Of a stretch of 64,000 bases of DNA, positions 860 through 26,356 are shown piece after piece (position 1 is the stretch's first letter; each line of letters starts with the position of its first letter). Source of the DNA: Monilinia fructicola (lineage: Eukaryota; Ascomycota; Leotiomycetes; Helotiales; Sclerotiniaceae). The DNA lies in assembly GCA_008692225.1 (NCBI GenBank), contig VICG01000015.1:1071001-1135000 (forward strand). The letters run 5' to 3'. Position numbers and translations under genes: made by a program. The notes below the pieces were generated by a model, which saw only the letters and a program-made list of their open reading frames with translations, was not told the origin of the DNA and made no database searches.

Positions 860-1241
<382 letters not shown>

Positions 1242-3276: not shown

Positions 3277-3535
3277 CTTGGTGTTGTTTTGGATCTATAC
3301 CGGGGTAATAGTTTACAAAATAATATATCTTTTAAATTCTTTTTAATATATTATAAAACTTTTATTTTTAAAAATTGAAATACATTCAACGTTTATTTTT
3401 TAACTTAATAATATCATAAAGGATTTTTTATAATTTTTAATAAAGTCGTTGATTTATTATAATCTTTGAAAATAAATTCCGTTTTCAGTCAATTTTTATC
3501 CCGGCATAGATCCAAGACAACCTTGGAACACCAAG
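3277..3535. mobile_element. Small TA-flanked inverted-repeat element, copy 2
   Basis: Second copy of the element at 556-808, 259 bp, with TA at 3275-3276 and 3536-3537. It aligns along its whole length with copy 1. The right terminal repeat is disrupted (AAGACAACCTTGGAACACCAAG), with about 6 extra bases accounting for the greater length. Confidence 0.86.
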
Positions 3536-4104
3536 TATACTCCGTAATGATTGATGATGAATGACCAATCAATGACCAACAAATGACCAATCAACAGCCA
3601 ATACCAACAACCAACAACCAAGAAGGATAACGATGATCAAAATGTCTTTCTTCCCAAGAGCGCGCCAATTAAGATCTTCCATTCATTCACCCGGGGACAG
3701 ATGCAGAAGCCAGAGCCTCGAGTAGCCCACTCATTCTCTGCTGGGACCGTAAGGATGACAGCTAGGTAGGTAGAACCAAATGAAGGTATCGCCATCTTCA
3801 GCTAGTTCGATCTATCCACCATCCCACCTCATCATAAGACAATAAGGCTGAAGACCTCACGCAAAGCAGGTCAAGTAGAACTACTACTTGTGGAACGAGT
3901 AGCTAGCTACCTGCTGGACCTACCTAGCTAGTTAGTTACCTGGTAGTCAGTTCCAAGGTCACTTTGGCATCCCCAGCCAATAACATTGCAGATTTCGACA
4001 GTTCAGCCTTGAAATTGAGATTGAGATTGAGATTGAAATTGAAATACAAGATTATACATATATGACTTTGTCGCAGGCCCAAAGACAAGATCTTCAGTTG
4101 AACC
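3536..4104. other. Intergenic, no gene recognised
   Basis: Normal-composition DNA with simple tracts (ATGACCAATCA repeats near 3551-3595 and GAGATT/GAAATT repeats at about 4015-4046). The exact 9-mer TACTCCGTA lies at 3538-3546, beside the MITE right end. I see no coding signal. Confidence 0.5.
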
Positions 4105-4180
4105 AGTATAAGTAAGTGAGTAGTAAGTAAGCTTGGAAATCAAAGAAAGACCAATCAACGAGCTTTTAATATTGATAGAA
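4105..4180. repeat. Host tandem duplication, copy 1, left part
   Basis: This segment (AGTATAAGTAAGTGAG to ATTGATAGAA) is repeated with transitions at about 11935-12010. In the second copy the DNA runs straight on into TTACTTTTATTTTATT, the counterpart of what follows the retrotransposon here at 11701. So 4105-4180 and 11701 onward were contiguous before the LTR element inserted. Relative to copy 2 this stretch keeps its G and C bases. Confidence 0.85.
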
Positions 4181-4346
4181 TGTTACAGTGTATTATCAAT
4201 CTCATGATCACATAACTATACTAGCCTAATTCGCCTAACTTATCTTAGATTAGCTTAGCTTAACTTAAATAAACGGGGCCTATAAAAAGAGCTTCGCTTA
4301 CTTTTATAAATCCTTATTTTAATTTAATTTAATTAAAACATTTACA
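4181..4346 (+). repeat. 5' LTR of retrotransposon 1
   Basis: 166 bp, begins TGTTACAGTG and ends CATTTACA. It matches the 3' LTR over its whole length, including TTAGATTAGCTTAGCTTA and GCCTATAAAAAG. The last may hold the TATA box of the element promoter. Differences are mainly C/T and G/A transitions. Confidence 0.93.
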
Positions 4347-5046
4347 AATAATAACAAGCTTTTTTATTGTTTATTACTATTAGTTATATATATTAACATT
4401 AAGGATAAATACAATTTATTTAATCGAATCTTTTTTTTAGCTTTTATTTTATACGTTAATTATCCTTTTTAAACTTTTTTTGATATATCGTTTGTATAAT
4501 CTTATTATATTTTAATGTAATATAAATGGTACTATTATATTTAAAGCATTATCTTATAATCAAATTTAGCTTTAAATCCTCAAAAAAGCATAATTTATTA
4601 ATTTTTTTTTTTACTTAAAAACCCAAAGCTAAAAAACAGATTATTAATAAATTAAATTGAAATTATCATTTGGATTTTCGAAAATTACAACGGAATAAAC
4701 AAACTATTTGCATTTTTTTTAATATTTTGAATATATATCTATTGCATCAATTAATATTATTTTTGTATTATAGATTTTTTATTAATTAACAAAATAATTA
4801 TATTAGATTTGTAGAATTTATACAAGAGTTTATAAACTCTCTAAATAATCTATAATCATTGCATAAACTTTAATCTTTTTAAATGTTAAATCAATTTTCT
4901 TTATTATTTATATCTTTATTTACATTTATATTAAATATTAAGAATATAAGTATACTTAGTATTATTGCTTTTTATAATAGATTAATTCTAGCAGTTTTTT
5001 GTTGTTATCCAAAAATTATTTTTGTAAACTATAATTAATGAATTTA

Positions 5047-5849
5047 CTCGGGCGGGTTTTAAAAAGAGGCATACGCTAAAATATAACTTATAATTATTCA
5101 ACGGAACCTTAATATAATTTTATAAGATTTATAGGTATTATAGATTTAGTATTTTTATATTTACTATAAAAATTTCGTAATATAAAATCCAATATTAAAT
5201 GAATAATAGGATAATAAAATATATGAATATTGAAAATTTAATAAAAAATTAGAGATTTATATTAATATTAAATAGTTTAACGAATATCATAGTTAAACTT
5301 ATCAAACTTTGTTAACTAATAAAAGAAAAGCTAAATTTTAAATATATTATTTTAGAATTTTAATATCTTTATTGATATTTAAAATATATATTAATAAAAT
5401 TGAAAATATAGGAAAATTTACGAGTTTTGAAGGGGTAAATTCGCTTATTTGGATTATATAAGCATATTTTTTCATTCAAAATTTGAATTTTTTGCTTTTC
5501 ATATCAACATATATATTAATATAATAGATAATATTAAATTATGAAAAATATTTAATGAAACGTTGAAAGATTATATTATTTTTCTATGATTTTATTTTTC
5601 AAAATTTATATATCGTTGAATTTTAAGTTAATATATTAATAAATTCTTAAATTTTAAAGTTTCTAAAGTCATTAACTTTATAGTATTATTATTCTCTTAA
5701 AAATTATTCTTATAGTATTAAAACTTTATAGAAAGATGTTAAAATACTAAATCTAATATATATATAAATTATATAAGAATTATATTAAAGTTTCGTTGAA
5801 TAATTATAAGTTTTATATTCGCCTATGCCTCTTTTAAAACGCGCCCGAG
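5047..5849. mobile_element. Nested long-inverted-repeat element inside retrotransposon 1
   Basis: An 803-bp element whose ends are inverted repeats of about 130 bp (left end CTCGGGCGGGTTTTAAAA, right end complementary, GCGCGCCCGAG with minor differences). It is flanked by TA (5045-5046 and 5850-5851). Widening the window gives ATTT/ATTT around ACTCGGG, so the exact duplication length is uncertain. The outer 30-40 bp keep G and C; the interior is about as AT-rich as the host element. No coding frame. It interrupts what should be the leader/gag region of the host. Confidence 0.82.
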
Positions 5850-8699
5850 TATTTGGTTTTGTTTATAAAATTTAGGCTACTTTAATTTTGATAATAAATT
5901 AAAGTTATTTATGAAAATTATTAATAACAAAATTGTTTACTATAATGTTTTCTTTTTTATTATTTAAATTAAAATAAAATCTATTAATATTATTAATAAA
6001 TTATTTGCTTTATATATTATTATTTTTTAGCTTAATTAATATTTTAAAAACAAAATTAAACTATAATATATAAATAAAATCTTGAATACTATATATACAA
6101 GATTTAAAGCTAATATTGAAAATTGATATACTAAACTAAAGATTTGCTTTAGGATATTATTTAAAGTTATATTGGAAAAGTTCGAAAGATTGAAATATAT
6201 TATTGGCAATGTATAAAAGTATAAGAATCTCAAAGAGTTTATTCAAAAGTTGATGATTTTTAAACGCAGTATTAGTATAATCAAATTTGAATATATTTAA
6301 ATGTTTATTATTCATTGTTATTTATTTACTAAACTATAAATTTATATTTTTACTTTTACCTTTAAAACAAATCTATTAATTTTTATAAAGTAAATCGAAT
6401 AGAAAAAAGATGATTAATTTAATATTTAATATTTAAATAATATACTATACAATTAATACAATAATAAACGGTTTTTTTATATTTTATATTATTAAAACAA
6501 TTATAAAATCCTTTTTCTCTTTTCTTTTTTTTATTATTTAATAAAAAATTCTATAATAATAAAAAATTAGATATTAATAAATCAAAGAATAATATTAAAA
6601 AAGATATTATATTATTAAAGAAAAAGCTATATTAAAGAAAGAATTTTTATTGTAACCGAAAATCTAGAGTTTAAATAATCTTCAAAATTAGCAAAATAAC
6701 TAAAAAAATTAATAATAAAGTTATCGCTACAAAGCATAGTAAGGATAATTTATATAATTAAATTTATTACTAAAATTTAAAAAATAATAAAAATAAATTA
6801 AATTAAAAATTTAAGAGCAATAATAAAAATTCGGATGTTTAAAATATTTATTTAATCTATTATATTAATATTAGATTATATAAATTATTAATATTAAAGG
6901 TTGCTAGAAATGTAAGATTTAAAATCGTTTATTGCTTAAATATTAATATTTTAAAATTTTATAAAAAAAATCAAAAGTTAAAGAGTACCCTTTTAATTTA
7001 TATTTCCAAATATAATTTTACTTTACTTTTCATTATTTTTAATATTTATATAAATAAAAATTATTATAAGTACTTTATATATAAAGAATTTTTTTTATTT
7101 AATAATAAATTATATTTATATTTCTGCAATAAATATTCAAAATTTAAATCTATTATATAACATTTTAAATCCAAAATTATTAATTAATTATAAATTATTA
7201 AACCTTCAACTTTTTGCATTATTAATAATCCTAACCAAATCATTTTAATAAAATCTATTAGAATAATTTCTTATATTGTATTTTTACTATAAATTATTTA
7301 ATTTACTATTTTAAAAAGCAAATTATTATTAGATTACACTTTTAAAGATTAAAAGTACATTAAGATTATATTAATATTAAATAGTTTTTAAAATAATATT
7401 TATTTTGTTTATTTTAATATTAATTATAATATAAATTTGATTAATAAGAAATTCCTATTTAAGATATATTTTACTATTAAGATTTATATTATAAAAAAAC
7501 TTTTGAAAATTCGTGGTTTAGGGTTTTAATTTTATAATATTAATAATTTTGTAAATTTAAACTTTTTTTTATTTATTATTAATAATCTTTTTATATATTT
7601 TTATTATAAGATTTATATTGTTGATAAATTGAATATATAAATTTTGTTAAGCTTTAATATTATTATTACAAAAGGTTAGGTTATTAATTTGAATAATCAA
7701 TTAGTAATATTATTTTAATGTATAAATTTGCAAATTAACGTTTTTACGTTAATAAAGTTTATTAAATGTAAAATTTTATTTTTTATTAAGAAAAAACTAA
7801 TGATTTTATTTTATTTTTGTGTTTTTGTTACTATTTTAAATAAAAAAAGCAATAAGTTTATTTTATTAAAACATAATATAATTTATAAACTTATATATTA
7901 AAACAATTTTAGTTCTTTTACATTTTTGATATCTAATATATATAAATCGGTTATAATTAAGAATTTTAGTAATAAAAAAGTTATTATCTATAAGCATATT
8001 AAGCTTAAGGATATAATCGATTTTAATACTTAAGCAATAACAATTATAAATAATCTTTATATATATATATCTTATTTAAATATTAATTACTATATAAAGC
8101 TTTATTAAACATCTTTTAATTAAAGAATTATTAACAATTATTATAATTGTAGTTTTATAAATTAATAAAACTTTTAAAAGCAATTTAAAGATTTTAAAAC
8201 AAAAAGTAATACTTTTAAATAATATAATTTTAAATAATATAATTGTTTTTAGGGATTTGTATTAACAATAAAGATTTTAAGAAATAATTGTAATTAATTC
8301 TATAGTATAAAAAGATTACAAAAAATTTGCTAAAACCCTTAAAAGTAAAAAAATATATATTAATCTTTGCAAGGATTAACAAAAAAAAATTTAAGTTAAA
8401 AAAAACTAAAGTTTATTCGATTAACAAAATGAATTAAAAGCTTATTAATAAAACGTTTAATTAATTATATAAATAAAGTTAGTTTAAGTAAATTATAATA
8501 CTAGTTTCTTTTAATTTTTTTATTTTTTGTATTTACAAAAATGTTATAAACGAAAAAGGAGTTATTAGCAAAAAAGATTATATTGTTATGGATATTAAAG
8601 CTTTGAATTAGATTATTATTCTCGATGTATACCTAATCCCTATTTAAATAAATATTATTACAATAATTGTTAATTGCTTATTTATTTTTACAATTAATT

Positions 8700-11400
8700 A
8701 TATTAGTTTTTTTTACTAATAATGCGTTAAAAAGAAATACTAAAAGTTTTTTACTATATTATTGTATTATAATTAGAAAACATTTATATATACTATAATA
8801 AAATTTCAGAATTCTTTGGCATATATTTAATATTAAATTAACTCTATTTTTCGTATAAAACGAAAGTTTGTAAAAGCCTATATTGATAACATTATTATTT
8901 TTAATTATAACTTTAAAAAACATTTCAATTATCTCCAATAAATGTTTTATTAGTTAAAATAGTATTATATTATTTTAAATTTAAAGAAATGCTTTTTCGT
9001 TTATTTTTTAATTACGTTTTTTAATTAAAAAGTTAATACTTTTAATCTAGCTTCTGCTACAAATAAACTAGCAGTTATTAAGATTTTAACTTTCCTATAA
9101 ATCTTAAAGCAATTAAAGTATTATTTAAGTTTAATTAAATATTTACAACAATATATTCCTTATTATACAAAATTTTCTGCTACGTTACAAAAACGAAAAG
9201 TTGAATTAAATTAAATACTTTAAGAATATAACAAAGATAAAATTACTAAAGTAAAATATTAAAAAAAAACAATTTTAGCAAGATTTAAGAATATTACAAA
9301 AAAAGAAAAAGATTTATTTAATACATTGCAACATACTTTCAAAAAATTTGCTATTCTGCATTATATAAATCCGAAAAAAAGATTATACATTAATATTAAT
9401 ACCTTAAAGAATAATATTGAAGATATAGTTTATTACTCCAATATTAAGTTTTTAATTCAAAAGTTGATAATGTTTATTATATTTTTGTTTAAACTAATTA
9501 TAATTATTAAATTTAATTATTAGTTTATTAAATTAAAGATTATAGGTTTATATTAAATTATTAATAGAATCTAATATTTTATCAAGTTCTTAAAATTGTT
9601 AATTATTGTTTATACTAATTATTCTATTATTATTTAAATAATAATCCAAACTTTAATAGATATTTTATTATTGATTAGATTGAATTTACAATATCTTCAA
9701 AGTTCTGAATATTTATCTAGATTTTGATTTGAAATATAATACAAACCAGGATAATTAAATATTGTACCAAATGCTTTATTAAAACTTTATATTATTAGCG
9801 TTGCAATTAGCAAATAACAAAATTTTATAATTAAATTAATTTATAATATTGATTTAGTGGAATTTTAAGGGTATTTTATAATTGTTTTGTAAATTAATAA
9901 AATCTAGCTATAGAAGTTGAAATAAGCTTACAGTATGGATATTAGAACTTTTAACTTTATTAAGCAAATCAAAAAAAATTCTGAACTAAAAATCAATACT
10001 ATAAAATTACCCTTTGAATTTAAAAATAGAATACTTTATATAAAGGCTAATTAAATCTATTCGCGGGTTTATACAATGGTATTTAAATCGTTAAAAACTA
10101 AGATTTTTAGTTATATACATAATTAATTTGAATATCTTAGTTATAATAGGATTTACGAAAGGGTTTTAATCAACTTTTACGTTTTTGATATTTCAAAAAA
10201 AATCCAAGCTTATCTATATTATTGTTATTAATGTAAAATATTATTAATTTTACATTATTAACTTTATAGTAGTTTATAATTAATCTTAATCTCTTTATAT
10301 ATTTTTTATATGATCTTTATTGATTTTATATTTGCTTTACTTTAATTTATTTTAAATTTGTTTAACTACAGTTTATTAATTATTAATAAATTTTCAAAAG
10401 CTATTATATTAATCCTAAGTAAATCAATCTGAATAACAATTTAATAAAGAAATACTTTGATTATATATTTGTTGCAAATCTTATAAAAAGTTTTTTAAGC
10501 AATAATATCAAATTAAAATAAAAAGTTTATTTTTAAAATATAAAAAAGTATTATAAATTTATTAAATATTAAATTACTCTTTATTATTGTTTAATACCCT
10601 TAAATTGATAATATTAATAAAATATACTAATTAAATAGTTAAAATTGTTTTATACTACTATTTAACTATTATAAAGGATATTTCTTATTAATTTAAAATT
10701 TTGCTTTATTTAACTATTATATTATCAAATTTTATTTTATATAAAATTAATATATCCATTATTATAGTAATGTATAGTTTACAAATCAAAAAGCTCTTTA
10801 ATATTGTAATTGAAACTATTGTAAAACTTTTGGAGATAATCCCTTTACAAACTAAATCTAAACCTACAAAACTTTCAGTCCAAATTTATTTCTATTAAAC
10901 TATCAATTAACGAAAAATACAAATTTACCTTAATTAAAGTTATTAATACAATAAAATTTATAGCAATATATATAAAGCGTTAATATAATAAACGTTATAA
11001 GCTAATATTCTTTAAAATTAGCGATTGGGTTTCGTTGAGATTTTATTGTAGTTATAATATATTTAGTTTTGCGGAGCGAAACACCAAAATTAAGCAATAA
11101 TTTGCAGGATCTTTTAAAGTGTTGAAAAGGGTAAACCATTTGGTGTATTGAATTAAATTGCTTGAATCGATAAAAGTGTATTTAATTATTAATATTGTAT
11201 ACTTTAAGCCTTTACCAAATCTTACCAAAAACTTTTATTAATAACCTTTTACATAGGAAATTTTATAGAATCTAAAGTTAATTGTTAATCAAATCTTGCA
11301 CAAACGAAAACAACGTAAAAAAAATAAAGGAATTATAATAAAGTATTTAATACAATATCAAAGAAAAATTATAAAATAGAATAAATAGTAAATAATAAAA
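8700..11400 (+). pseudogene. pol remnant of retrotransposon 1 (RT, integrase, chromodomain)
   Basis: Translating the + strand and ignoring stops shows the gypsy order. Reverse transcriptase has Val-Lys-Ala-Tyr-Ile-Asp-Asn at about 8870-8890, where the usual Asp-Asp is Asp-Asn, the change a G-to-A mutation makes. The fungal gypsy continuation with Leu-Gln-Gln-Tyr-Ile-Pro-Tyr-Tyr lies at about 9140-9170. The integrase Cys-x-x-Cys region with an Asp-Phe-Ile catalytic start lies at 10322, followed by Asn-Lys-Phe-Ser-Lys-Ala-Ile near 10390. A GPY/F-like stretch is near 11105-11165 and a chromodomain-like tail near 11275-11400. Stop codons are mostly TAA or TAG at positions where Gln or Trp would be expected. 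Not translatable. Confidence 0.8.
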
Positions 11401-11534
11401 TATATTCTAATAAAAGTTATTAAAGCTTTTAAGAAATAAAATAGTAAAAGATAATAGAAGATTATACAATATATTTTCTTCATTCTTTTTTTATTTTTAT
11501 ACTTTAAAATAAAGTATTTTCTATTAGCAGTATC

Positions 11535-11700
11535 TATTACAGTATATTATCAATCTCATAATCATATAACTATACTAGTTTAATTTGCCTAGTTTATCTT
11601 AGATTAGCTTAGCTTAGCTTAAGTAAGCAAAGCCTATAAAAAGGGCTCCGCTCACTTTCACAAATCCTCATCTTAATTTAATTCAATCAAAACACTTACA
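11535..11700 (+). repeat. 3' LTR of retrotransposon 1
   Basis: 166 bp, begins TATTACAGTA (5' copy TGTTACAGTG) and ends CACTTACA, followed by the target duplicate TAGAA. Its second half keeps more G and C than the 5' copy (GGGCTCCGCTCAC versus GAGCTTCGCTTAC). Confidence 0.93.
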
Positions 11701-11930
11701 TAGAACTACTTTTATTTTATTTTATTTTGTTTTACTTAATCCTATTCCCTTTTTTAACTAATTATTAACTATTAAATATTGAATTTCAAATTCTAAAAAT
11801 AAAGATTTCTATAAATCTATTAATAAATTAATAAATATAATATAATTAATATCTAATAATAATTTTTATTTTATTTTATTATATTCTATTTACTATTAAT
11901 ATGTTTTTCTATAAATCTTCTTTTCTAAAT
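11701..11930. repeat. Host tandem duplication, copy 1, right part
   Basis: Starts with the duplicated TAGAA, then a short TTTTA tract (11708-11730), then a stretch that aligns with 22932-23080 (landmarks ATTATTAAATATT, AAAGATTT, TATAATATAAT). Against that copy it carries numerous C-to-T and G-to-A changes, so this inner copy was the mutated one. Confidence 0.82.
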
Positions 11931-12062
11931 AAATAAATATAAGTAAATGAATAATAAGTAAACTTAGAAATTAAAAAAAACTAATTAATAAGCTTTAATA
12001 TTAATAAAATTACTTTTATTTTATTTTATTTTATTTTATTTTATTTTATTTTATTTTATTTT
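11931..12062. repeat. Host tandem duplication, copy 2, left part and empty site
   Basis: Aligns with 4105-4180 but with G-to-A and C-to-T changes throughout. It then runs uninterrupted through AATAAAATTACTTTTATTTT, the unoccupied counterpart of the insertion site of retrotransposon 1, and into a TTTTA pentanucleotide tract (about 12006-12062) where retrotransposon 2 is inserted. Confidence 0.85.
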
Positions 12063-12256
12063 TGTAACGGTTGTGTCACGACCGATACGGAAGGAGTCGG
12101 CCTTGGAGCTGATACCCTTAGCGTGTCAGCAAGGATGATATAGTTAGCATTATCAATATTATTAATAGGAGCGGATAATATAAGCTTAGTTATAAATAGA
12201 TAGTATTAAATAGTTTAATATAAATCAATTTTTATTATAATATACATTTTTTACTA
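12063..12256 (+). repeat. 5' LTR of retrotransposon 2
   Basis: Begins TGTAACGGTTGTGTCACG. The first 110 bp or so keep a normal GC content (ACGACCGATACGG, GAGTCGGCC), while the matching part of the 3' LTR is strongly AT-shifted. From about 12175 on both are comparable (GCGGATAATATA). Confidence 0.92.
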
Positions 12257-14929
12257 TATAGTAATAAATCCTAAAAAAACAAACTATTTTATATTATTAT
12301 ATTTAAAATAATAATAATTAAGTAAAGTTGATTATCATTTTATAGTATATAAATAATCAATCTTTAATAGTATTAAGATCTTAAAATAATTTGTATTTTT
12401 TTTTTTTTTTTTTTTTCTTTTTTTCTTTAATTTATACCTTTTTCAAATTTTTAATAAATTTAGAATTTATTATAAAAATATAACAATTTCAGATTTTTTT
12501 TGAAATAGAATATTAGTTTTGTAAGTATTTTTCTTGTAAATTATGGGATATTGTTGAATATGTATATAATATCTATATAAACAAAGAATTATATAATATT
12601 AATAATATCAAAAAAACGAGATGAATAAAATTAAAGATTATTATAAAAGTATATTTTCTACAAAATTAAATTATTAATAAATTAATATTCCAATTAATAA
12701 TAAACGCTTTTAAAAAAAAATTGAAATTATTAATAAATTTGCTAATTTTCGGAGTAATACTAAATGTACTAAAAAAGTAGGGTAAATTCAATACAGAACC
12801 AAATTTAAAAGCAAGAAGTAAAAACTTTATAAAATATATTTAACAAAATTAAATGAAAATCTAAATCTTTAGGAATATTAATATTAATCAAAACTTTGAT
12901 TATAAAAAATATTAATATAATATTAACAATATTATAATAAACATTAAATTAATTATAAAAAAACAAGATAATATTATTATAATCTCTAAATTTTGTATAA
13001 AAATTAATATTTATATGAATACTTGAATTATTATTTATTAAAATTATAAAACAGAATAAAACGGATATATTAGTAATTTTGTATATAATATTAAAACAAA
13101 TATTGTTAAACGTATTATTAAAAAACAAATAGCATTAAAAGGTAGAATAAAGATTTGTAATTAATAGGATAGTAAATAATGTTAATATAAAATTTCAAAT
13201 ATTCAATAATTAATTATTAGTATAAGAGAATTAAGGTAATAATAGGCTTAACGATTATGGATAAAATAACAAATTATATACAAACCCAAGTTTTTTAGTA
13301 ATACAATTAAAATAATTAATAGTTGTAATAATAAACTAAATCTAAATTTAATTACTAATTATAAAATCCCTAAATCTATAGGATAATTAGATATAGTTAT
13401 ACAGTATAATATTAAAAGTAGAGGATGTAGGATATTTTAATTTTTCAATAAAGAATATATAAAACGTAAAAATGGTAATAATAAAAAAATCAATGATATA
13501 TATAGATATATATACTTTTATATCTTGATTAAAATATTTAATACTAATAGATAGTGATATAGTGATTATAAAAATCTTTTTTAATTGTTTTTGTGGTATT
13601 GTTTATGTATGGTATATTATAGAACTAATAGATATTAAATATATGTTAATAATAATAACAATAATAACTATATTTTATAATATTCTGAAAAAATGGTTTT
13701 GGATATACTTAGGGACTATAATACAGAATTTATTAAAAAATAAATATTAGATTAAAAATTTATAAAAAGATTGTTTTATTAAAAGCTTTTTTAATATAGT
13801 ATTATAAAATGCAAAAACAACCAAAATATTCTTAAAATATAATTAGTTTATAACAATTTGGAATAGTTTAGTGCTAGATTTTAAATTATATATCAAATAT
13901 CTTTAATCAAAAATATAATTAACTAAATTTTTCAAATAAATTGATAATTTGAAACCAATATTCTAAACTTTTACAAAAAGATTTTTTATAAAAAACAAAA
14001 ATTAGTAAAAAGTTTGTGGGCGATTATAGAGAAGATAATTAAATAATTTAGCATTAAAATAATGATTATAGTTAACTTAGTTATAGAAAATTTGTGTATA
14101 TTCTTTATTAATAAGAAATTAATTATTAAAGATAATAAACATTATTTATTAGTGTAAAATATTAAAGATTATAGAACTTATAAAAAAGCTATTAACCAGC
14201 GAATAAACTAATACAATCCGGAGAATAAAGCAAATTAGTTCAAGGATACAATAAGTTAAAGTAGAATAAACAATCGTAATAATAAGGATACTAAACTTAT
14301 AATTAAAAATATTATTAAGGATATCAAAATCAAAAACAAAATCAAAAATATCGATTGTAAAATAACTTTAAACAATAATAATAATGGTAATAATTATAAA
14401 GATAAATAACCTTTTAAGTAATAACAAAAAATCCAATAAATATTAAAAATAATATTGATTATTAAAATAATATATAAGAAGGAGTTAACAAAAATATTAA
14501 ATACGAATTAAAAGAGAATGATTATAAGGTGTATTTAAAACCAAAAATTAAAAATTATAATGCAATATTAGTTTACTTTTTTATATTTGGATTAAATAAT
14601 TATACAAAAAAATATTATAATAAATCAATCAATTATTTTATAGCGATAATAATATTTAAGAAACAATATATAGATCTATTAATTTATAAAAAGTATAATA
14701 AATAGTTTAATAATTATAACAAATTATATAAGTATATATATACAATATATAAACAAAAAAAAACAAAAGAAAATAATTATATTATAGATATTGGAAGAAG
14801 TTAAGATATTAAACAAGGAATTAATGTATATTAATTTAATAATAAATGTAAGCAAATTTATTGGAGTAGATTATAGTTTTTATAATTAGCATTTTATTAC
14901 TATTAAAATTTAATTTAATATATTATTAA

Positions 14930-17900
14930 ATAATATAATCAATATATATTTAAACTCCGGATTACAAATAATAATAGCTAGTAAAAATTAATTTTTAAAT
15001 ACATTAAATAATATTAAAATATATACGTATATAAAATCGGTTAAAGTAGAAAGTATTGATAAAAATAATATTTAATTAATAGAATATATAATTATAATCT
15101 TTATATTCCCAAAAAACAAGGATGATAAAGCAGTAATAACTTGTTTTCAAAGGAAGATATATTTTATAAAGGAATTAATGGTTAATATAATTATTAATAA
15201 TAATATATTAGTACCTAAAGGAATTAATATTATTATATTACAAAAAAAAGCAATTATTATCTTTTATAATATTATAATATTTATTATTATAGTTACTAAA
15301 GATTTACAATAATATCGAATTACAATACAAACAATTTAAAAAATAAAGATTCTATTAAAATAAAAAGCTTTAATAATAGTATATTACAAAGCTAAAAGTT
15401 TGAATAAGGATATACTATTTAAACCATATAAAATATTATTATTAATATATATTTAATGATATAACTTAAATTTCTTTTATTATATTGTATATAATAATTC
15501 GGAGGAGGAAGTATATTTTATAGCAAATACAATTATAGGATCCTTTATTAATTTCGATTTTGATAAAGTATACAAAATAATATACAATACTAAAAAAATA
15601 ATAAATTTAGTATTACAAAGTCCACTCCGAATAATAATAGTAATAACAAATAAAATGTCTAATATAAAAGAGATAATAAGTCGCCTACCCTACTTCTCGC
15701 CACCCCCCCCATTTGGCCAGCATTTCACACCAAAAACGGCCATTTTAACGTATTTATAACTCTCTACGAAAAATAAATATATATATTTTAAATTTTAAAT
15801 GAAGCTTTTATATATAATTATTAATAGATTCTGAAAATCTTAAATTTTTGCGATTTTTTTTATAAAGAGTAATAAAAGATTATATAGAAAATTAGAATTT
15901 TCGGTTTTGGATTTGTATGGAAATCACATACAAAATTGAAACTTTGAAATAAATATTTATAATTTCTAAACAAAAATAATTAAAAATAATCTGTAAATTT
16001 TTATAGAATTTATTAATCAATATATAATGAATAAGCTATTTAAAATATATATAATAATTTGAAACTATTGAGTAAATTGAAATTAGAAAATTTTTACTTA
16101 AAATTTTATCGTTAAAATCTAAGAATCTATATTAAACATTTATTATAAATAATAGTATATTATTAAAATAATATATTCAATTTAAATTAGCTTTAAGATT
16201 CTTGAAAATTTTTTAGATTATTTTTAGCTATTTTTATTAAATAAATATAACTTTTTTTAAAGATTTTGATTTTGTATGGGATTTACATACAAATCGAAAA
16301 TTAGAATTTTAATTTTCTATAATCTTTTATAACTTTTTATAAAAAAATCGCAAAAATTTAAGATTTTTCAGAATCTATTAATAATTATATATAAAAGCTT
16401 TAGTTAAAATTTAAAATATATATATTTATTTTTTCGTAGAGTTATAAATACGTTAAAATGGCCGTTTTTGGTGTGAAATGCTGGCCAAATGGGGGGGGTG
16501 GCGAGAAGTAGGGTAGGCGACTTATACAATATTAAAGTTATAATATATAGAAATAATAATATAATAAAACAGTTTATAAAGTTATTTAAATAAATTTTTA
16601 AGATAATTTATAAAATAATTTGGAGTTTATTAAATTTTCCAAAAATAAATGATTAACAATAAAATTATACTTTGAATAGAAAAAAAAATTTAAAAGAAAG
16701 ATTAAGATTTATTTTTTAAAAATAAAGGATTATATAGCAATAAAAAAAATATTCAATAATTTAATTTAACAAGGAAGATTAGAAAAAACAAAATTTCTAA
16801 TATTATTTATTTTCCCTATATTTATAATATATAAAATATTACTTAGAAAAATAAAGAAAACTTATATTATAATTAACGTTCGCAACTTGAATACAGAAAC
16901 TATTCCGGATATATATTCTATACCGTTATAAAAAAATATATTACAAATAATATAAGGATACAAGTATATTACAATTATAAATTATATAATGTTTTTTTTT
17001 TAATAAAAAGTTTACCCTTCCACAATAAAATATTTTATGGTTATAATATATATAGAACAATATACTTTTAATTATTCACTAATAGGATTTAGGAATTTAT
17101 TAATATATATATAACGTTAAATAAATTTAATTCTGGAAGATCTTAAAAAATTCGCAAAAGTATATATTGATAATATAATTATTACCAATTAAATATTGCA
17201 AAAGCATCTGCAATATATTTTAAATAAGTTTTTTATTGTTTTATAGGCTATAATATTATTATCAAAGGAATCAAATATTTTATTAGATACCTATCAACAA
17301 TTGTATTAGGATAGAAGGTAAATATGTACAGTTTATTTAATATTAAAATATAAATTAATAGTTTTAAAAAAAATTTTGTTTTTAAAAAACCTTTAAGATT
17401 TGAAACGTTTTTTAAGCATTATAGGATACTTACAATACTTTATTAAAAATTATATTGAAATTATAGATTCGTTACAAAAAAGAAAGATATAGCTATTAAA
17501 GAATGCTTTATACAAAAAAAGAATTAAATATAACTTTATAATGTATAAAATATTTAATATATTATTTATAGCAGAATTAACAATATTTATTAAAGTTAAA
17601 GCGATATTACTACAAAAACAAGTATTAGTATATATAAATTTGGTATACTTTTTGCTTATAGATTTTAATATATTAAAAGTAAAGGATATTAGAATTATTT
17701 TATATTATATAAAGAGTAATAAAATAATAGCTAAAGTACTTAGTATAACAAATATAGAATTAATTTTGTTTTTATTAAAATAATTATAGGATATGGAAAT
17801 ATGTTATTGATTATTAGAATTAAAGATGATAGTGTTGGTTTAGGGCTTATATAAAATAAATTATATTATTTAATATAATAAAGTTTTATTAATTATTATA

Positions 17901-19651
17901 TATATTAATTATAATATATTAATTAATATTTTCAAGAAAGTAGATATTGTAATGATTATATCTATTAATAAATTAAACCTAAAATTAATATTAGCAATTA
18001 AGTTTATATCTATTTTTAATTTTGATATATAATATAAAACCAAAAAAAGAGAATATAATTTTGGATATATTATTGCATTTATTTTATAAAGGAGATAATG
18101 AAGATAAGAATTATAGCTTTAATAAATTTAAAGCGTTGTTTGCAACATTAAAAAACAAAAGAATCTTTTTAATACAGTTTTATAATAATATTTATAAAAA
18201 TAACAAATAATTTTTATAATAAATTATTAAATAAATATAAAGCTAAGCTAGTATAAACAAATGTTTTAGTAATAATCAAAAAAAATGATCTATTAAAAAC
18301 AAATACAACGATTTTATTATTTTATTTCTAAAATAATTTATTGTATAAAATCGATAATGATAAAGGTTTAATATAATTATATATTCTATATACAATACAT
18401 AAGAAAGTTTTTAAAATGCTACACCAAAATTATTATTCAGGCTATGTTAAGTTTATGAATTTGATTAATAAAAACTTTTATATTCGAAAAAATATTAAAG
18501 TTTATATAAAAATATTTATGATATTATAAAAAATATTAAATATATTAAATAAAAAGATATTGATCTTATAGAACGATATAACTAATATTATTATCATTAA
18601 TATTATTTTATATAATCATTATTAATTTTATTTTAGCTTTTTTAATCATGAAAGAAAAGTTTAATTTAGTTTTAATAGAAATAAACAAATTAACGAAAAA
18701 GATATTGCTTATTTCAGGAAAGATAATATAGTTAATTATAAATTGAAGATTAATATTAATTATAAGGATTTATAATTTTAATTAAAATTATCCTAAAGTA
18801 ATAATAAATAATAAAAATCCCAAATTTTTGTTAGAAATATAAAAAGCTATTTTTTTTATATTAAGTATAATATTATTATATTCTATAATATATTATATAT
18901 AAACGAATAAATAATTAAAAATAACTAATTAGATTATAGAAATTACATAATATTTTTATTTAAATTCAATAAAAGATATATAGAAATAAAAAAGTATATT
19001 GTTAATTTTATAATTTTTATTTAAATAATTTTTATTAAACCTTTATTAACAAATTGTTTAATAAAGCGGTATATAATTTTACATTAAACGATATAGTATA
19101 ATTATTGAATGTAGCGAAATAAGGATTGTTAATATTTATTGTATAAATAAAGGTTAATAATTGTATTACTTTTGTAATAATCGTGGTAAAACAGAAGTAT
19201 AATAGAAACTATATATCTATATTCTTTGAGGAGGGCGATTTAGTGTTTTTATGTTTATATAAAAAGTATTCAATTTTAATTGTAAATAACAAAAAGTTGA
19301 AATAATAGTGTATAAAATCTTTTTCGGTAATATAGCAAGTTAGGAAATTGGTTTATAAACTTAATATATTAGAGTATTAATAAATTTACTTAATAATTTT
19401 TAATAGCTTATTTAAAATTAATATTAAAAGATAAGGATTTATACAATCATTCAAAACTGAAACGATTAAATATAGTTACAATCGAGGAATATAAAGAATT
19501 CGAAATTAATAAGATTATCTATAAATGTATTATATCAATAAATATTGTATAATATTTTATTAAATAGAAAAAATATAGCCCAAAATTCGATTAATGAATT
19601 TCCTATAAATATTTTGATTATTGCAATAAATTAATTTAGGAATTTAAGAAA
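14930..19651 (+). pseudogene. pol remnant of retrotransposon 2 (protease, RT, chromodomain)
   Basis: Read on the + strand across stops. An aspartic-protease core has Leu-Asn-Ser-Gly at 14950, followed near 15120-15190 by a fungal gypsy protease signature with Lys-Ala-Val-Ile-Thr-Cys-Phe-Gln-Arg. Reverse transcriptase is seen near 16860-17215, with Pro-Asp-Ile-Tyr-Ser-Ile-Pro, then Phe-Ala-Lys-Val-Tyr-Ile-Asp-Asn. The chromodomain near 19481-19651 keeps Glu-Phe-Glu-Ile-Asn-Lys-Ile-Ile, Tyr-Phe-Ile-Lys, a stop where Trp is expected, Lys-Lys-Tyr-Ser-Pro, and Ile-Ser-Tyr-Lys. Chromodomains in this family bind methylated histone H3 and steer integration to heterochromatin. Both catalytic Asp losses (protease and RT) fit G-to-A mutation. 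Interrupted at 15679-16522 by the nested element. Confidence 0.82.
15679..16522. mobile_element. Nested 844-bp near-palindromic Fot1/pogo-like element
   Basis: Ends AGTCGCCTACCCTACTTC and its complement, flanked by TA (15677-15678 and 16523-16524). The outer 100 bp of each arm are almost identical (TTTGGCCAGC, eight-C run, ACGGCCATTTTAACG on both). Homology between arms continues inward for about 320-350 bp, so most of the element is one large inverted repeat with a small centre. AGTC termini plus TA duplication are shared with fungal Fot1/pogo transposons; there is no transposase frame, so it would be non-autonomous. Assignment to Fot1/pogo is inference. Confidence 0.88.
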
Positions 19652-22439
19652 AAACAATAGAATAACTAAATGACAATAAAACCAAAAAAAAGTAATAATA
19701 ATATAGTAAAAGCAAAAACAAAATTGATTATAAAAGATAATCGCTATAAATTTATTATAATAATAATAATAAATTATAAAATCATTTTTGATGTTAAAAC
19801 TAATATGTTTTTTTATTATATTTTGTTATAATATTATTATTTATTTTTAAAATTTATTTTTTTATTTTTAACAATCTTTTTTTCTTTTTTAATAAGCAAT
19901 TAATTATTCTAAACTTTAAAGGCTTCTTTTTATATTATAATAATTAGAAATATATTTTAAGATTAAGAGTTTATCTTTATTTATTATTTTTTACAAATAA
20001 TATTATAATAACAAAAAACAAATATCGAAATTTATATATACAAAAATAAAAATTAAGCCTTTTTTATTGCAAAATATAGTACAATCTAGATCAAATATAG
20101 GTATAATATATAACAACAAAGAATTAAAATAATTAGCTAAAGTAAATCCTATAATAATAAATAAATTGTTTTATTAATAATTAATAATTTAATTTAAATA
20201 TATTAAAAAGAATTTGTATTATTAAAAAAAAAATATATTTTCTATTAGGATTTAAAAAGCTATTTAAAGAAATAATTATAAAAAAAAAACCAATTATATA
20301 ATCTACAAAAACTAATGTAATAAAGCGATTTAGAATGGTAGCATTTATTATAAAATTCAAAAAATTATAAAAACGTAATAACCAAATCAAATACAATAAA
20401 AACATTAAAAATCAAAGCAATGAAACAGAAATAAAACCAGATAATGAAATAGATAATAGGGATAAATAATGTAATAGCGATAATAATAATAATAACGAAG
20501 ATGAAGATAATAAAAAAAATAATATATTAGATATTGATAATATTAAAGTTTTAAATTTTGAAGGAAATATGAATAATAACAAATTTAGTAATTGTAATTT
20601 AATAGTAAAGAATGCAATATGTAATAAGAACTTTTAAAATATTCAAAAATTGTTTTTATAAAGAATATTAAAGGATACAAAATAAGCTTTAAAGTATAAC
20701 AATAATACCATTATAAAATACAAAAATTTTTGTAAAATCAATTAAAGCAAAAATGATATTAAGCTAACAAAAGAACAATAACAATTAAATAAAAAACGTT
20801 AGAGATTAGAAAATAATAATAGGGATTTGAATAATATAATATTATAAAAGAAATACAATTTATTAATTCTATTGTAAATTTTAATAGTATACTTTTATAA
20901 TATTAATAGAATAAACAACTTTCTAGTATATATATTTCCAAAAGCAAATACTATTTATGTATTATTTAATATATTTATTTTAATTCAAAAATATATAGAA
21001 TACTATTTAGGAACTTTTAGTATAAATAGCAATATTTATAATAATATAATTATATTTAAAAATGCTATAAAAATATCCGAAAAAGAAATTTTTATTATAA
21101 TAGTAGAATAATAAACTATAATTAAAATAATTTTTTTATTTATAGAAACCAAAAAATGATATATATTAAATTTTAGTTTAAAAAATTTGTATAAAATAAT
21201 TTAATATTGAATAGATGATTAATATTTTTTATTATAGTATTTTTTTTTTTATTTTTGATAAGTATAGAGAAAATAATTTATGGATTGTTTAAATTGGTTA
21301 AAAATACAATCAATTTAAAGAGAAAAATAACAAAGGTATAATAAGGATAATATAATGTTGTAGTAAATTCGAGATAGGGATATATAATGTAGGGATATAT
21401 AATATAAAAACAAATAATATAAGGATATATAATATAAGAATATATAATATAAGAAATGTATAAATCGAATAAAAAAAACAAAGCCTTTAAAGTATTAATA
21501 TAATAAAGTTAGTGATTTAAGGAATTAAGAATTTAAGGGAATTGCGGATATTATATTTTGGAAAGATGTAATGTTTTAATTGTAGAATAAAATATTGTAA
21601 TTAAGTTATCAAAATTAAAAATGTTGTTGTATTTTTGTTATATGATATATAAACGCAGGTAAGTGGTATAGTGGTTTATAATATTAATAAAAGTTGAAAA
21701 CAAAGATTAAAAGCAAATAAAATTAAAGAGTGTAAGAGAAAAATAGATTTAGTAAAAGCGAAAAAGGAAGCAAAAGCAAAAGCAAAAAAAGTTTTTTTTG
21801 AAAAAAACAAAAATCAAACTTTCAAATTTTAAGGTTAAAAACTTAATAGAAGTAATTACGATATTAGCAAAACTATAATTAGTAATTATAAATTTACTGT
21901 ATATAACAAATAAGAATAATAAGGTTATAATTGAAATGGTTATAAATATAATAACCAAATTGGCGGTATAAAAAAAAAACAAAGAAATTGGAATATAAAA
22001 ACTAAGTATAGTAAATCAAATTACAAATGTTGAATAATAATTCATAAAATGTTTTTTAAAATTCAAAACAAATGATATTAAATATAATAGTAATTATACA
22101 AACTTATATAATAATATAGTTATACATTGTAAATAATAAATTTGCGATATATTTTATAAATATAATTTTTAATATAGTGAAAACAACAAATAAGATATTA
22201 CAAAAATTGCTGTATATAAAAAAGTTTAAAGTATTGTAGGAATATATAACAAAAAAATCAATAATAAAAAGCAAAAGATATAGTAAAAACGAAATAATAT
22301 TTAAAGAATAATTATTATAATTATAAATTTCTTTTGTTTTTTACTTTTACTAGTTTTTAAAATAGTATATACAATAAATTTTGCAATATTAATAATTTGC
22401 TTTAATAAAGGTATTAAAATTTTTCAAAATAAAAGCAAT
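19652..22439 (+). other. Unassigned 2.8 kb between chromodomain and 3' LTR of retrotransposon 2
   Basis: Chromoviruses normally end soon after the chromodomain, so this length is unexpected. Read on the + strand, 20240-21110 resembles a degraded coding region. It has a basic start, an Asn/Asp/Glu-rich middle (about 20400-20570), a charged Lys-Glu-Gln-Gln-Gln-Leu-Asn-Lys-Lys-Arg stretch near 20768-20800, then a hydrophobic part. The minus-strand open frames here (20181-20405, 21278-21481, 21749-21982) are hydrophobic shadows of A-rich + strand sequence. It could be an extra gene carried by the element or an older nested insertion. No terminal repeats were found. Confidence 0.45.
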
Positions 22440-22634
22440 TATAACAATTATATTTATAATTAATACGGAAAAAGTTGACTTTAAAATTAATACTTTTGAT
22501 ATATTGATAAAGATAATATGATTAACGTTACTAATGTTATTGGTAAAAGCGGATAATATAGGCTTAGCTATAAATAAACAGTATTAAACAGTTTAATATA
22601 GATTAGCTTTTACTACGATATACGTTTCTTGCTA
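22440..22634 (+). repeat. 3' LTR of retrotransposon 2
   Basis: 195 bp, begins TATAACAATTATATTT (5' copy TGTAACGGTTGTGTCA) and ends TTCTTGCTA before the ATTTT duplicate. The first 110 bp are heavily shifted to A and T by changes of both C-to-T and G-to-A type. The last 80 bp keep more GC than the 5' LTR. Confidence 0.92.
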
Positions 22635-22930
22635 ATTTTATTTTATTTTATTTTATTTTATTTTATTTTATTTATTTTATTTTATTTTATTTTATTTTAT
22701 TTTATTTTATTTTATTTTATTTTATTTTATTTTATTTTATTTTATTTTATTTTATTTTATTTTATTTTATTTTATTTTATTTTATTTTATTTTATTTTAT
22801 TTTATTTTATTTTATTTTATTTTATTTTATTTTATTTTATTTTATTTTATTTTATTTTATTTTATTTTATTTTATTTTATTTTATTTTATTTTATTTTAT
22901 TTTATTTTATTTTATTTTATTTATCTTATT
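22635..22930. repeat. (TTTTA)n microsatellite, about 58 units, split by retrotransposon 2
   Basis: About 290 bp of TTTTA repeats with one 4-bp slip near 22670, starting with the ATTTT target duplicate. The left remainder of the same array is at 12006-12062. Read as protein it gives a meaningless Phe-Ile-Leu-Tyr repeat. Confidence 0.95.
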
Positions 22931-23080
22931 TTGTAATTAATTATTAAATATTAAACTTTAAATTCTAAAGACAAAGATTTTTATAAATCCATTAATTAAT
23001 TAATAAGTATAATATAATCAATATCTAATAGCAATTTTTACTTTATTCTATCCTATTCTATTCTATTCAACATCAATACA
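22931..23080. repeat. Host tandem duplication, copy 2, right part
   Basis: Aligns with 11740-11910 in copy 1 but keeps C and G (TCTAAAGACAAAG, ATAAATCCATTAAT, CAATATCTAATAGCAA) where copy 1 has T and A. Normal unique DNA follows from about 23080. Confidence 0.8.
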
Positions 23081-23452
23081 TTACCACATCATCATATACA
23101 TCACCACAATACAACCTCACCCCCTCAATCTACCAACCCACCCACCTACCCATCCATTCATCCATCCACCCACAAAACCAAAATCCCTACACCCCAAACC
23201 TCATCTCAGCCTATAATACAAAAGCAACACCCTCCCAATACTAGTCTCCCGCCCAAATTCACATACGAGTAACGCCGTACCCGACATTCAGCGCGGGAAG
23301 CTACAGAACAGTATGGTAGTAGGTAATCTCATCATGTTCATCCCAAATCTCACCTCTTTGGTATTGATAGGTTTGTTTTGGGGGGACGGGGGTTAGGGGA
23401 TGGGATGCGATGGGGAAGGGAGGGGAGGGGGAGGGGAGAATGCTATATTTAC
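23081..23452. other. Intergenic, no gene recognised
   Basis: C/A-rich then G-rich unique DNA (GGGGGGACGGGGG near 23380, GGGAGGGGAGGGGG near 23418) marking the sharp return to normal composition after the transposon island. Confidence 0.5.
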
Positions 23453-23697
23453 TATATTTACTACTATATTACTATATTTACTATATTTACTATATTTACT
23501 ATATTTACTATATTTACTATATTTACTATATTTACTATATTTACTATATTTACTATATTTACTATATTTACTATATTTACTATATTTACTATATTTACTA
23601 TATTTACTATATTTACTATATTTACTATATTTACTATATTTACTATATTTACTATATTTTTACTATATTTACTATATTTACTATATTTACTATACTA
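23453..23697. repeat. 9-bp minisatellite, unit TATTTACTA
   Basis: About 26 tandem copies of TATTTACTA with very few interruptions (near 23470 and 23657). Because 9 is a multiple of 3 the array is open in all three + frames, giving spurious repetitive open frames of more than 120 residues. No gene. Confidence 0.95.
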
Positions 23698-26014
23698 TAC
23701 TCATTATACTCACTATCCTCACTATACTTCCATCAAAACCCCAAAACTCCATCACAACCTTACAACAATACCCTCACCTAACCCTACCCAACCCTAACCA
23801 CACGGAGAATTAAATGACCTACCCACCCTTCCCAAACGCGGATCCGGAAACCCCTTATCCAAACATGCCGAGATTGTGATACCCGCGCGCGCGCGCGTGC
23901 GTGCATGCGTGCGTGCGGCCCTCCCTCGCAACGTACTCGAAGGGAGGTGGTCGGTAGGGAGGGAGGCTTACTCAGGGATCAGAAATTGGAAGTTGGAGAT
24001 GGTGGGTGGAAGGTGGTGGGTGGTAAGCTGGGTAATTATTCGAGGGTATTATTACTCCGTACAGTAGTGATTCTGTCAGTTGGGGTCGGGTCAGATGGAT
24101 AGCCCGTTGTAACTACTCGGTGGGCGGTAGGGAATTATTAGTCGATCGACGGAGTGGCTGTACTGTGGATGGGGGTTTGGGACCATGTTTAGATGGGGCG
24201 GGTATGGAGATGGGGGTTTTGGGCGAGGATTGGAGAGTTGATGATACTGTAAGTACCGTGAGGGCAGCGCAGTCCAGTGCAGTACAGTGGGATGACCATC
24301 CCACGCCTGGACTTGAGATCAATGCGGAATTGGCGGAAAGGCACGAACTCGGAACTAGAGATTTGGAGAGCGAGGAGGGAAGTTCCTTGTGGGAACGTGG
24401 GAGGTTCACGTTGGGGCGCTCCGAGTTCGAGTACGGATACGGAGGGATGGATGGGGAGTACCCCGTAGATGCTGGGATAGAGAGGAGGGGCTCCGCAATG
24501 GGATTCTTGATGGGACGAGAGTTTTTCCCTCGTGGTGGAGAGGAGGGGGTGGAGATGGGATGGATGAGATGGGACAGGATAGGAGGTGATAGTCGAACTC
24601 TCCTCTTTTGACACCTGATGAATACCAATCTACCTACCTACCTACCTACTGCAGCAACAAATATTTGAACCCAAACTAACACTGTTATTGATCTTCGCAA
24701 TCCATGGGCAAAGAAGATTATGATGGAAATTATCATGGATCATGTACGGAGTAGAGAACGATGTCTAGATTTCTTGAACGCTCGGGCTGTAGAAATCGTC
24801 GCCATTATCGTGGGGCTCGCTAGTGAAATAAATCACCGAGGTGGAATATACTGCAGCTAAAATGCCCTGACGTGCATCTTTATTTTAAGGTGATGGATGG
24901 GCTAGGCCGGGGGGTGGTGATTGATATTCCATCCATGGAAATTATCCGGTCGATTGAATATGAAGCACAGTAGTGCATACAGTATAACTATCTATATCCC
25001 ACACACAACCCGCAAACCATCATCAGAAAACCATCCATCCATCCATCCATCCATTTATCATCTATCATCCCCAACCCCTTACCACCCCGAACCCCCCAAC
25101 AGAACAATCACCGCTCGAAGGTCGAACTCATCAAACGCTACCTACCTCTGATATAAAACCCATCCATCCATCCATCCATTCCTTCCCTCAACCGCAAAAT
25201 CAACCTCCAACTTCAAACCTCCTCCTTAGTACATACCTCCTTAGGACTTACAAAACCCAAAACATCCACCCACCAACCTACCTACCTAGGTACCTATCTA
25301 ATAGCCACCCGCCCAAAACCTCGATTCCCCATCCCCAACAAAGCATTCTACTCTGTAGATTACAGTAAGTAATCTTACAGCAATAACAAGAAAACCATCC
25401 CCCACCTCCCCAACACCGTCGAGTACGGAAATGCAATCTTACAATACAAACCTATAAATAAACACCCCGCCATTCCTCTCTATATCCATATCAGTCTCGT
25501 ATACCCATCCATTTGTTTTCATTGTGTGCTTTCTGTATTTATCTCTTGAGTTTGGTGTATTTATATCTATATCTATATCTATATCTATATCTATATCTAT
25601 GTATATGTATATGTATATTGATCTATACTCTGTACTTGACGTTTTGTTGTGCTGTTAGTTAGTCAGTTGGGCCAGGCTAGGCTAGCTATTTGGTTTATGT
25701 ATGTAATATATATACTAGGTATATACACAAACACCTCATCTTAAACCAACCGGTGAATATAAATAAAAACTATAGCACACTCGGTCAGTAGGTAGGTAAC
25801 GTTAGTGAGTATACTTTTAGGGAGTTGGGAGGTATGGAATAGAGGGAGATGGATGAATAGATTATATATAGATGAAGAGAAGGAATACAAGCGTCTCCGG
25901 GCTGTCCCTCTAAATCCTCACGATAATTATACAATACTTGTTTATACCTAATATACCTAATATACCTAATATACCTAATATACCTAATATACCTAATATA
26001 TATATATATACATA
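23698..26014. other. Intergenic with simple repeats, no gene recognised
   Basis: Contains an alternating purine-pyrimidine stretch CGCGCGCGCGCG plus GTGC repeats (23884-23917), CATC tracts (25027-25060, 25160-25180), a TATATC hexamer array (25557-25602) and about six copies of ACCTAATAT (25947-25998). Open frames on both strands at 24113-24628 overlap each other and read as Ser/Pro-rich or Gly/Arg-rich protein of no known family. They are probably a consequence of G-rich + strand DNA. Exact TACTCCGTA/TACGGAGTA words occur at 24053-24061 and 24745-24753. Confidence 0.5.
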
Positions 26015-26267: not shown

Positions 26268-26356
26268 TAGATCTAATTTTACCTATTCTTCTACACTCCG
26301 AGTTCCAGCATCATAAAGCCACCACCCACTCATTCACGCTAAGCTCGCATATTAGA

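What the first reader, a model, noticed from the sequence alone, without database searches (positions are those of the whole stretch)
4105..23080. Tandem duplication with a different retrotransposon in each copy, filled and empty sites both preserved
Segments 4105-4180 and 11935-12010 are homologous, as are 11740-11910 and 22932-23080. Copy 1 is split by element 1 at TAGAA. Copy 2 reads straight through the same site (AATAAAATTACTTTT against GATAGAA plus CTACTTTT) and is split 50 bp later by element 2. Seeing an ancestral empty site within the same window is rare. It orders events: the duplication existed before, or arose with one side empty before, both insertions.
Basis: seen in the sequence. 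Interest (0 to 1): 0.75.

Follow-up and report, generated by a model that had tools for sequence, protein, structure and literature searches.

The report
Tandem repeat split by two retrotransposons
A short stretch of fungal DNA was duplicated side by side, each copy was later interrupted by a different jumping element, and the copy that one element missed still shows the uninterrupted site; it is a tidy but ordinary fossil of genome decay, overprinted by mutations of the kind fungi use against repeated DNA.

Summary
A ~274-bp unit is tandemly duplicated. Copy 1 (4107-4180 plus 11706-11905) is split by LTR element E1 (4181-11700, TSD TAGAA). Copy 2 (11938-12062 plus 22635-23082) reads through the E1 site and is split 53 bp further on by a different LTR element, E2 (12063-22634, TSD ATTTT). 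With one TSD removed, copy 1 aligns to copy 2 across the site without a gap there. Mutation-tolerant patterns from each half (34 and 35 bases) match without mismatch at two places each in the 44-Mb genome, all in this window: not a many-copy repeat.

All 14 substitutions in segment A are C>T/G>A in copy 2, none in copy 1. The 0.35 kb between the elements is 9.7% G+C. Each element also holds a nested ~0.8-kb inverted-repeat insertion, whose site is empty in both relatives examined per family. The host is a Sclerotiniaceae fungus, perhaps Botrytis.

Verdict: real, and the order (duplication before both insertions) follows; but a known kind, degraded elements in an AT-rich block. No sister genome or reads were available.

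The parts
4107..4180 (+). Unit copy 1, segment A1 (left of E1); last 5 bases TAGAA are the E1 target-site duplication
4181..11700 (.). LTR element E1 (LTRs 4181-4346 and 11535-11700; TG...CA on the left, TA...CA on the right); 7.52 kb, against 6.68-6.79 kb for 12 LTR pairs of the family (two further pairs are 3.1 and 4.3 kb). Orientation not established by coding domains
5049..5849 (.). Nested ~0.8-kb terminal-inverted-repeat element inside E1, TA on either side; flanks contiguous (to within 4 bases) in the two relatives L051 and L053
11701..11705 (+). Right copy of the E1 target-site duplication TAGAA
11706..11905 (+). Unit copy 1, segment B1 (right of E1), strongly C>T/G>A mutated
11906..11937 (+). 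Spacer between copy 1 and copy 2; origin unresolved; shares a 13-mer with 11806 but not above control
11938..12062 (+). Unit copy 2, segment A2, then (TTTTA)n; contains the uninterrupted E1 site at 12009|12010; last 5 bases ATTTT are the E2 target-site duplication
12063..22634 (.). LTR element E2 (LTRs 12063-~12257 and ~22440-22634); 10.57 kb, against ~9.72 and ~9.74 kb for the two relatives measured. Orientation not established by coding domains
15680..16521 (.). Nested ~0.84-kb terminal-inverted-repeat element inside E2, TA on either side; flanks contiguous (to within 2 bases) in relatives L052 and L054
22635..22932 (+). Expanded (ATTTT)60 microsatellite of copy 2, right of E2; its first 5 bases are the right copy of the E2 target-site duplication
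22934..23082 (+). Unit copy 2, segment B2 (right of E2)

Best explanation
A ~274-bp unit holding a short ATTTT microsatellite was tandemly duplicated at one place in a Sclerotiniaceae genome. Afterwards LTR retrotransposon E1 integrated into copy 1 (5-bp duplication TAGAA) and a different LTR retrotransposon, E2, integrated into the microsatellite of copy 2 (5-bp duplication ATTTT, which is also the repeat unit). Both elements, as members of dispersed families, were mutated by repeat-induced point mutation, and the mutations spread into the ~0.35 kb caught between them (B1+A2) and much less outside (no change seen in A1 relative to A2, few in B2). Two short inverted-repeat elements also landed inside E1 and E2. 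Shown: the unit, its two copies, target-site duplications, empty sites, direction of the substitutions, nested empty sites. Inferred: RIP as the agent, spreading from the elements, and that the join is biological and not an assembly error. Unknown: whether E1 or E2 came first.
For: Alignment through the E1 site without a gap there after removal of one TSD. A 34-base pattern of A and a 35-base pattern of B, widened for C/T and G/A, have 0-mismatch places only at A1, A2 and B1, B2 in 44.03 Mb; the backward-read controls find none. Perfect 5-bp TSDs by the same procedure at 9 of 10 other E1-family elements (10 pairs chosen from the 40 LTR matches) and, by inspection of printed ends, at 2 of 2 E2-family elements. 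14 of 14 polar substitutions in A lie in A2; enclosed (A2+B1) 28 against outer (A1+B2) 5. In the enclosed copies CpA is mutated at 13 of 14 sites and CpT at 13 of 23 (p 0.027, from the counts). LTR pairs of 10 relatives differ by 21-31 transitions and 0-1 transversions each.
Against: No sister genome or reads. Sites mutated to T or A in both copies are invisible, so 'no change in A1' is relative to A2; A1 itself is 30% G+C and its small-sample RIP index is 0.86 (6 against 7 dinucleotides), below the 1.32 of genic DNA. CpA preference in A alone is not significant (5 of 6 against 7 of 13, p 0.33). B alone is 14:5 in direction (p 0.064). Independent dating is weak: 4 of 223 transversions between unit copies against 2 of 2002 between LTR pairs (p 0.0013), but against E1 and E2 alone 1 of 357 (p 0.075), and three of the four lie near an end or a gap; with one counted the contrast is gone (p 0.27 and 1.0). 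The 32-bp spacer is unexplained. No reverse-transcriptase match in either element, so 'retrotransposon' rests on LTRs, ends and TSDs. The patterns sample 34-35 bases of each half, were built from these copies, and would miss copies with indels or more than 3 other changes.
Confidence: 0.87

Rival explanations
1. Assembly artefact: two alleles of one undivided locus (one with E1, one with E2) were joined end to end by the assembler.
For: Copy 1 and copy 2 each hold one element at nearly the same place, as two alleles would. No reads were available to exclude it.
Against: Only the 274-bp unit is repeated: the unique DNA left of 4107 does not recur left of A2 (extension score 1.6, within controls) and similarity to the right stops at 11905/23082. 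A false join of two alleles would be expected to repeat longer flanks. A 32-bp spacer sits between the copies. The genome is in 20 contigs of 44.03 Mb in all.
Confidence: 0.06
2. The unit is itself a dispersed repeat (a small transposon) that inserted twice side by side.
For: Unit of ~274 bp with definable ends.
Against: Patterns that allow C/T and G/A find A and B only twice each at 0 mismatches. Eleven other loci brought in score 11-20 (A) and 13-33 (B) against 39 and 78 for the true partners; one search listed 31 places, of which only those with loci (7 besides the query's own) were scored so. By eye no terminal inverted repeats and no target-site duplication at the unit's ends.
Confidence: 0.03
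3. Chance similarity of AT-rich sequence.
For: The block is 11-21% G+C, and unrelated AT-rich stretches match by BLAST at E 8e-15 (for instance 10184-10681 against 18476-18979).
Against: Shuffle controls and slide, collinear order, exact TSD and the genome-wide patterns.
Confidence: 0.01
4. The enclosed segment was mutated because A1/A2 and B1/B2 are themselves a duplication recognised by RIP, not by spreading from the elements.
For: RIP acts on duplications.
Against: Then A1 should be mutated too, yet 0 of 14 polar changes lie in A1. A 274-bp repeat is below the length usually needed for RIP (recalled from Neurospora work, no call).
Confidence: 0.1

Closest known systems
AT-rich, RIP-degraded transposon islands of Botrytis (B. 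fabae, B. cinerea; PMC10971195, found, passages read)
   Same: Blocks of transposon remnants with low G+C and RIP signature between normal gene-bearing DNA
   Different: Here a duplicated host segment is caught in the block with filled and empty sites side by side
RIP leakage into single-copy DNA next to repeats (Leptosphaeria maculans; PMC2973834, found, passages read, which also cite at least 930 bp in Neurospora crassa)
   Same: C>T changes in non-repeated DNA beside RIP-affected repeats
   Different: Here a second copy of the same DNA outside the elements serves as reference, and a segment enclosed by two elements can be set against one touching one element
Filled/empty-site comparison of transposon insertions (general method, recalled)
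   Same: Pre-insertion site read from another copy defines TSD and ends
   Different: The empty site lies next door in a tandem copy and not in another genome

Membership tests
LTR retrotransposon (E1) | Paired direct LTRs with TG...CA ends | tested here: met
   166-bp LTRs, 24 transitions and 0 transversions in 164 aligned columns; TG...CA left, TA...CA right
LTR retrotransposon (E1) | 5-bp target-site duplication | tested here: met
   TAGAA both sides; identical 5 bp at 9 of 10 family elements tried, the tenth with an alignment that stops short of the LTR end
LTR retrotransposon (E1) | Reverse transcriptase / integrase domains | tested here: inconclusive
   No RVT_2 (6 matches in the genome) or RVT_1 (16 matches) in the window; 8 of 13 open pieces of two relatives gave no Pfam match near its cut-off (best E 0.052). 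Integrase not searched
LTR retrotransposon (E2) | Paired LTRs, TG...CA ends, 5-bp target-site duplication | tested here: met
   ~195-bp LTRs (1 transversion in 193 columns); ATTTT both sides (trivial inside an ATTTT repeat), right end TA; relatives L052 and L054 show ATAAT and GAAAA on both sides and end in CA
LTR retrotransposon (E2) | Reverse transcriptase / integrase domains | tested here: inconclusive
   No RVT_2 or RVT_1 match in the window; integrase not searched
Tandem duplication | Two collinear copies of one unit, same orientation, adjacent | tested here: met
   A1-B1 / A2-B2 in order, 32-bp spacer
Tandem duplication | Unit not repeated elsewhere | tested here: met
   No further 0-mismatch place for either pattern; 2 (A) and 1 (B) places at 3 mismatches, which align poorly. 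Patterns sample 34-35 bases of each half
Repeat-induced point mutation | C>T/G>A substitutions in repeats | tested here: met
   14 of 14 in A in one direction; LTR pairs of 10 relatives differ almost only by transitions
Repeat-induced point mutation | Preference for CpA | tested here: inconclusive
   A alone 5 of 6 CpA against 7 of 13 CpT (p 0.33); A2+B1 together 13 of 14 against 13 of 23 (p 0.027). Index (CpA+TpG)/(ApC+GpT): E1 0.85, E2 0.90, middle 0.42, genic 1.32, but A1 also 0.86 on 13 dinucleotides
Repeat-induced point mutation | Premeiotic, dependent on its DNA methyltransferase-like enzymes | not testable with these tools
   Needs crosses and mutants

The most novel reading that the evidence does not exclude
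RIP in this fungus spreads into unique DNA mainly when that DNA is enclosed by two RIPed elements, and little from a single edge: the same 74-bp sequence shows no change 0-74 bp outside E1 and, with the first bases past the site, 14 changes when enclosed between E1 and E2. Against it: B2, which touches only E2, has 4 such changes about 0.31-0.35 kb from E2, and 3 of 20 outer flanks of E1 relatives are at or below 24% G+C.
Probability: 0.13. Interest if true: 0.45.

Novelty: new member of a known kind. Interest (0 to 1): 0.2.

Why it matters
It is a clean relative-dating fossil and a small natural experiment: two copies of one otherwise unrepeated sequence, one outside and one between RIPed elements, let the spread of mutations be read site by site. 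It changes no view of how the elements work.

Tried and rejected
Plain DNA searches of the own genome with 4000-4180, 11706-12013 and 22936-23120 did not list the known partner copies, so their silence on further copies was not used; patterns tolerant of C/T and G/A replaced them.

A longer unit was tried by anchored extension. To the left nothing significant beyond 4107 (score 1.6; 150 random anchors, mean 0.6, highest 5.2). To the right the similarity ends at 11905/23082 (score 17.5; 150 anchors, highest 7.5).

The spacer 11906-11937 was tested as a fragment of B: best place about 11806, score 21, reached by 6 of 60 control pieces, so not claimed.

Element class (Copia or Gypsy) could not be assigned. 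A primer-binding-like stretch after the 5' LTR in some relatives resembles initiator methionine tRNA sites, from recall only.

LTR divergence was not used as a clock because nearly all differences are transitions. The BLAST of E1 and E2 against relatives with relaxed gap costs gave many spurious diagonals and was not used for numbers. In one search the nested elements themselves were also aligned to the relatives (best about 59-60% identity); no control was run for that, and the empty sites rest on the contiguous flanks. Searches joined the flanks two bases too far right (into the LTR); one search repeats the join at the right edge, and its numbers are used for the site. One search used slightly wrong column totals for the transversion tests; one search repeats them with the counts. 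Gene conversion between the copies was not tested.
Full report
What is there. The window is bases 1071001-1135000 of contig 15 of a 44.03-Mb genome in 20 contigs. An open frame at 48539-49738 (minus) is 98% identical to Cdc23/APC8 proteins of both Sclerotinia nivalis and Botrytis cinerea, so the host is a Sclerotiniaceae fungus. Two small contigs of 356 and 312 kb would suit Botrytis but do not prove it. G+C is 44% over 27-60 kb and 11-21% per kilobase from 4 to 23 kb.

Observation. Self-comparison gives LTR pairs 4183-4346/11537-11700 and 12131-12256/22509-22634, and the pairs 4107-4181/11938-12010 and 11710-11897/22880-23067. Since other low-complexity or AT-rich pairs in the same list reach E 5e-17, I used controls: local scores of 39 (A) and 78 (B) against 2000 dinucleotide shuffles with maxima 20 and 35, and in a stepped slide over the window the best place outside the query itself is the partner copy in both cases. 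Patterns of 34 (A) and 35 (B) bases that allow C or T and G or A have 2 places each without mismatch in the genome, all four in this window. The other hits have 3 mismatches (2 for A, 1 for B), and the backward-read controls find none. That the known copies match is by construction; the information lies in the lack of others. Plain DNA searches missed the known partners and are not evidence either way.

The empty site. E1 spans 4181-11700 with TAGAA on both sides. Copy 1 with one TAGAA removed aligns to copy 2 through the site with no gap at the site: 14 substitutions over 79 ungapped columns, all C>T or G>A in copy 2, and 2 one-base gaps further left. E2 (12063-22634) begins 53 bp right of that site inside an ATTTT repeat; copy 1 has the short repeat uninterrupted. 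Hence the duplication preceded both insertions, unless the region was later rewritten by gene conversion, which I did not test.

The elements. E1 belongs to a family with 40 LTR matches scored of 42 candidates. I took 10 element pairs from these, and 9 of 10 show identical 5-bp duplications; the alignment of the tenth stops short of the LTR end. E2 belongs to another family (40 scored of 58 candidates); both full-length relatives examined show 5-bp duplications on inspection of their printed ends. Neither element has a reverse-transcriptase match. E1 is 7.52 kb against 6.68-6.79 kb in 12 LTR pairs of its family, two more pairs being 3.1 and 4.3 kb. E2 is 10.57 kb against 9.72 and 9.74 kb. In each a palindromic element of about 0.8 kb with terminal inverted repeats and TA on both sides accounts for the surplus, and its flanks are contiguous, within 4 bases, in 2 of 2 relatives of each family.

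Substitutions. A: 14 of 14 polar differences in A2. B: 14 in B1 and 5 in B2. Enclosed against outer 28 to 5, p 6.6e-5 if sites were independent; B alone p 0.064. Four of the five B2 changes lie in its first 50 bp, the side nearest E2, though a 0.3-kb microsatellite lies between. CpA is mutated at 13 of 14 sites and CpT at 13 of 23 in the enclosed copies (p 0.027); in A alone 5 of 6 against 7 of 13 is not significant. CpG is 2 of 2 and CpC 0 of 2 in A. The middle 11706-12057 is 9.7% G+C; A1 is 30%, lower than the 44% of the unique DNA left of it, and its RIP index (0.86 on 13 dinucleotides) does not mark it as clean. Sites changed in both copies cannot be seen, so A1 is unchanged only relative to A2. 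The 75-bp outer flanks of 10 E1 relatives average 37% G+C (20 flanks, minimum 19%, 3 at or below 24%). This is the known picture of RIP and its leakage: passages on Botrytis AT-rich regions (PMC10971195) and on leakage beside repeats in Leptosphaeria maculans, citing at least 930 bp in Neurospora (PMC2973834).

Age. Transversions between the unit copies, 4 of 223, exceed those between LTR pairs of E1, E2 and 10 relatives, 2 of 2002 (p 0.0013), but against E1 and E2 alone the contrast is with 1 of 357 (p 0.075). Three of the four lie near an end or a gap of the alignment, and with one counted nothing remains (p 0.27 and 1.0). The order therefore rests on the empty sites.

Literature. (15 of 50 and 9 of 9 papers listed) led to the two papers cited, of which I read passages only. 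Two searches for precedents listed 6 and 5 papers; I saw only titles and the starts of abstracts, and none is evidently about a tandem copy with filled and empty sites under RIP. That is no claim that none exists.

Verdict. The feature is a fossil of ordinary processes: duplication, two insertions, nested insertions, RIP with spreading. The most novel reading left open is that enclosure by two elements, not mere adjacency, governs spreading; one locus cannot show it, and B2 and some outer flanks speak against a strict form of it.

Noticed in passing
window 5049-5849 and 15680-16521: Two nested ~0.8-kb palindromic elements with different inverted repeats and TA on both sides; by eye their G+C-rich ends are almost unmutated although the host elements are heavily mutated, so they either came later or were too short for RIP.
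   Followed up: partly
window 537-802, 3257-3521, 26011-26272: Three copies (84-88% identical) of a ~265-bp element with inverted-repeat-like ends on both sides of the AT-rich block, perhaps a miniature transposon.
   Followed up: no
window 22635-22932: (ATTTT)60 right of E2, against ~10 units left of E2 and about 5 by eye in copy 1: large expansion since the duplication or the insertion.
   Followed up: no
window 861-1240 and 23443-23694: Pure (AAT)127 array and a ~28-copy CTATATTTA array.
   Followed up: no
window 12063-12120: The first ~60 bases of the left LTR of E2 keep a higher G+C content while the right LTR is strongly C>T/G>A mutated there (by eye).
   Followed up: no
window 11906-11937: Unexplained 32-bp spacer between the two unit copies; shares the 13-mer TTTCTATAAATCT with 11806 (not above control).
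   Followed up: partly
window 31467-31599, minus strand: U4 spliceosomal RNA gene (Rfam RF00015, 103.6 bits).
   Followed up: no
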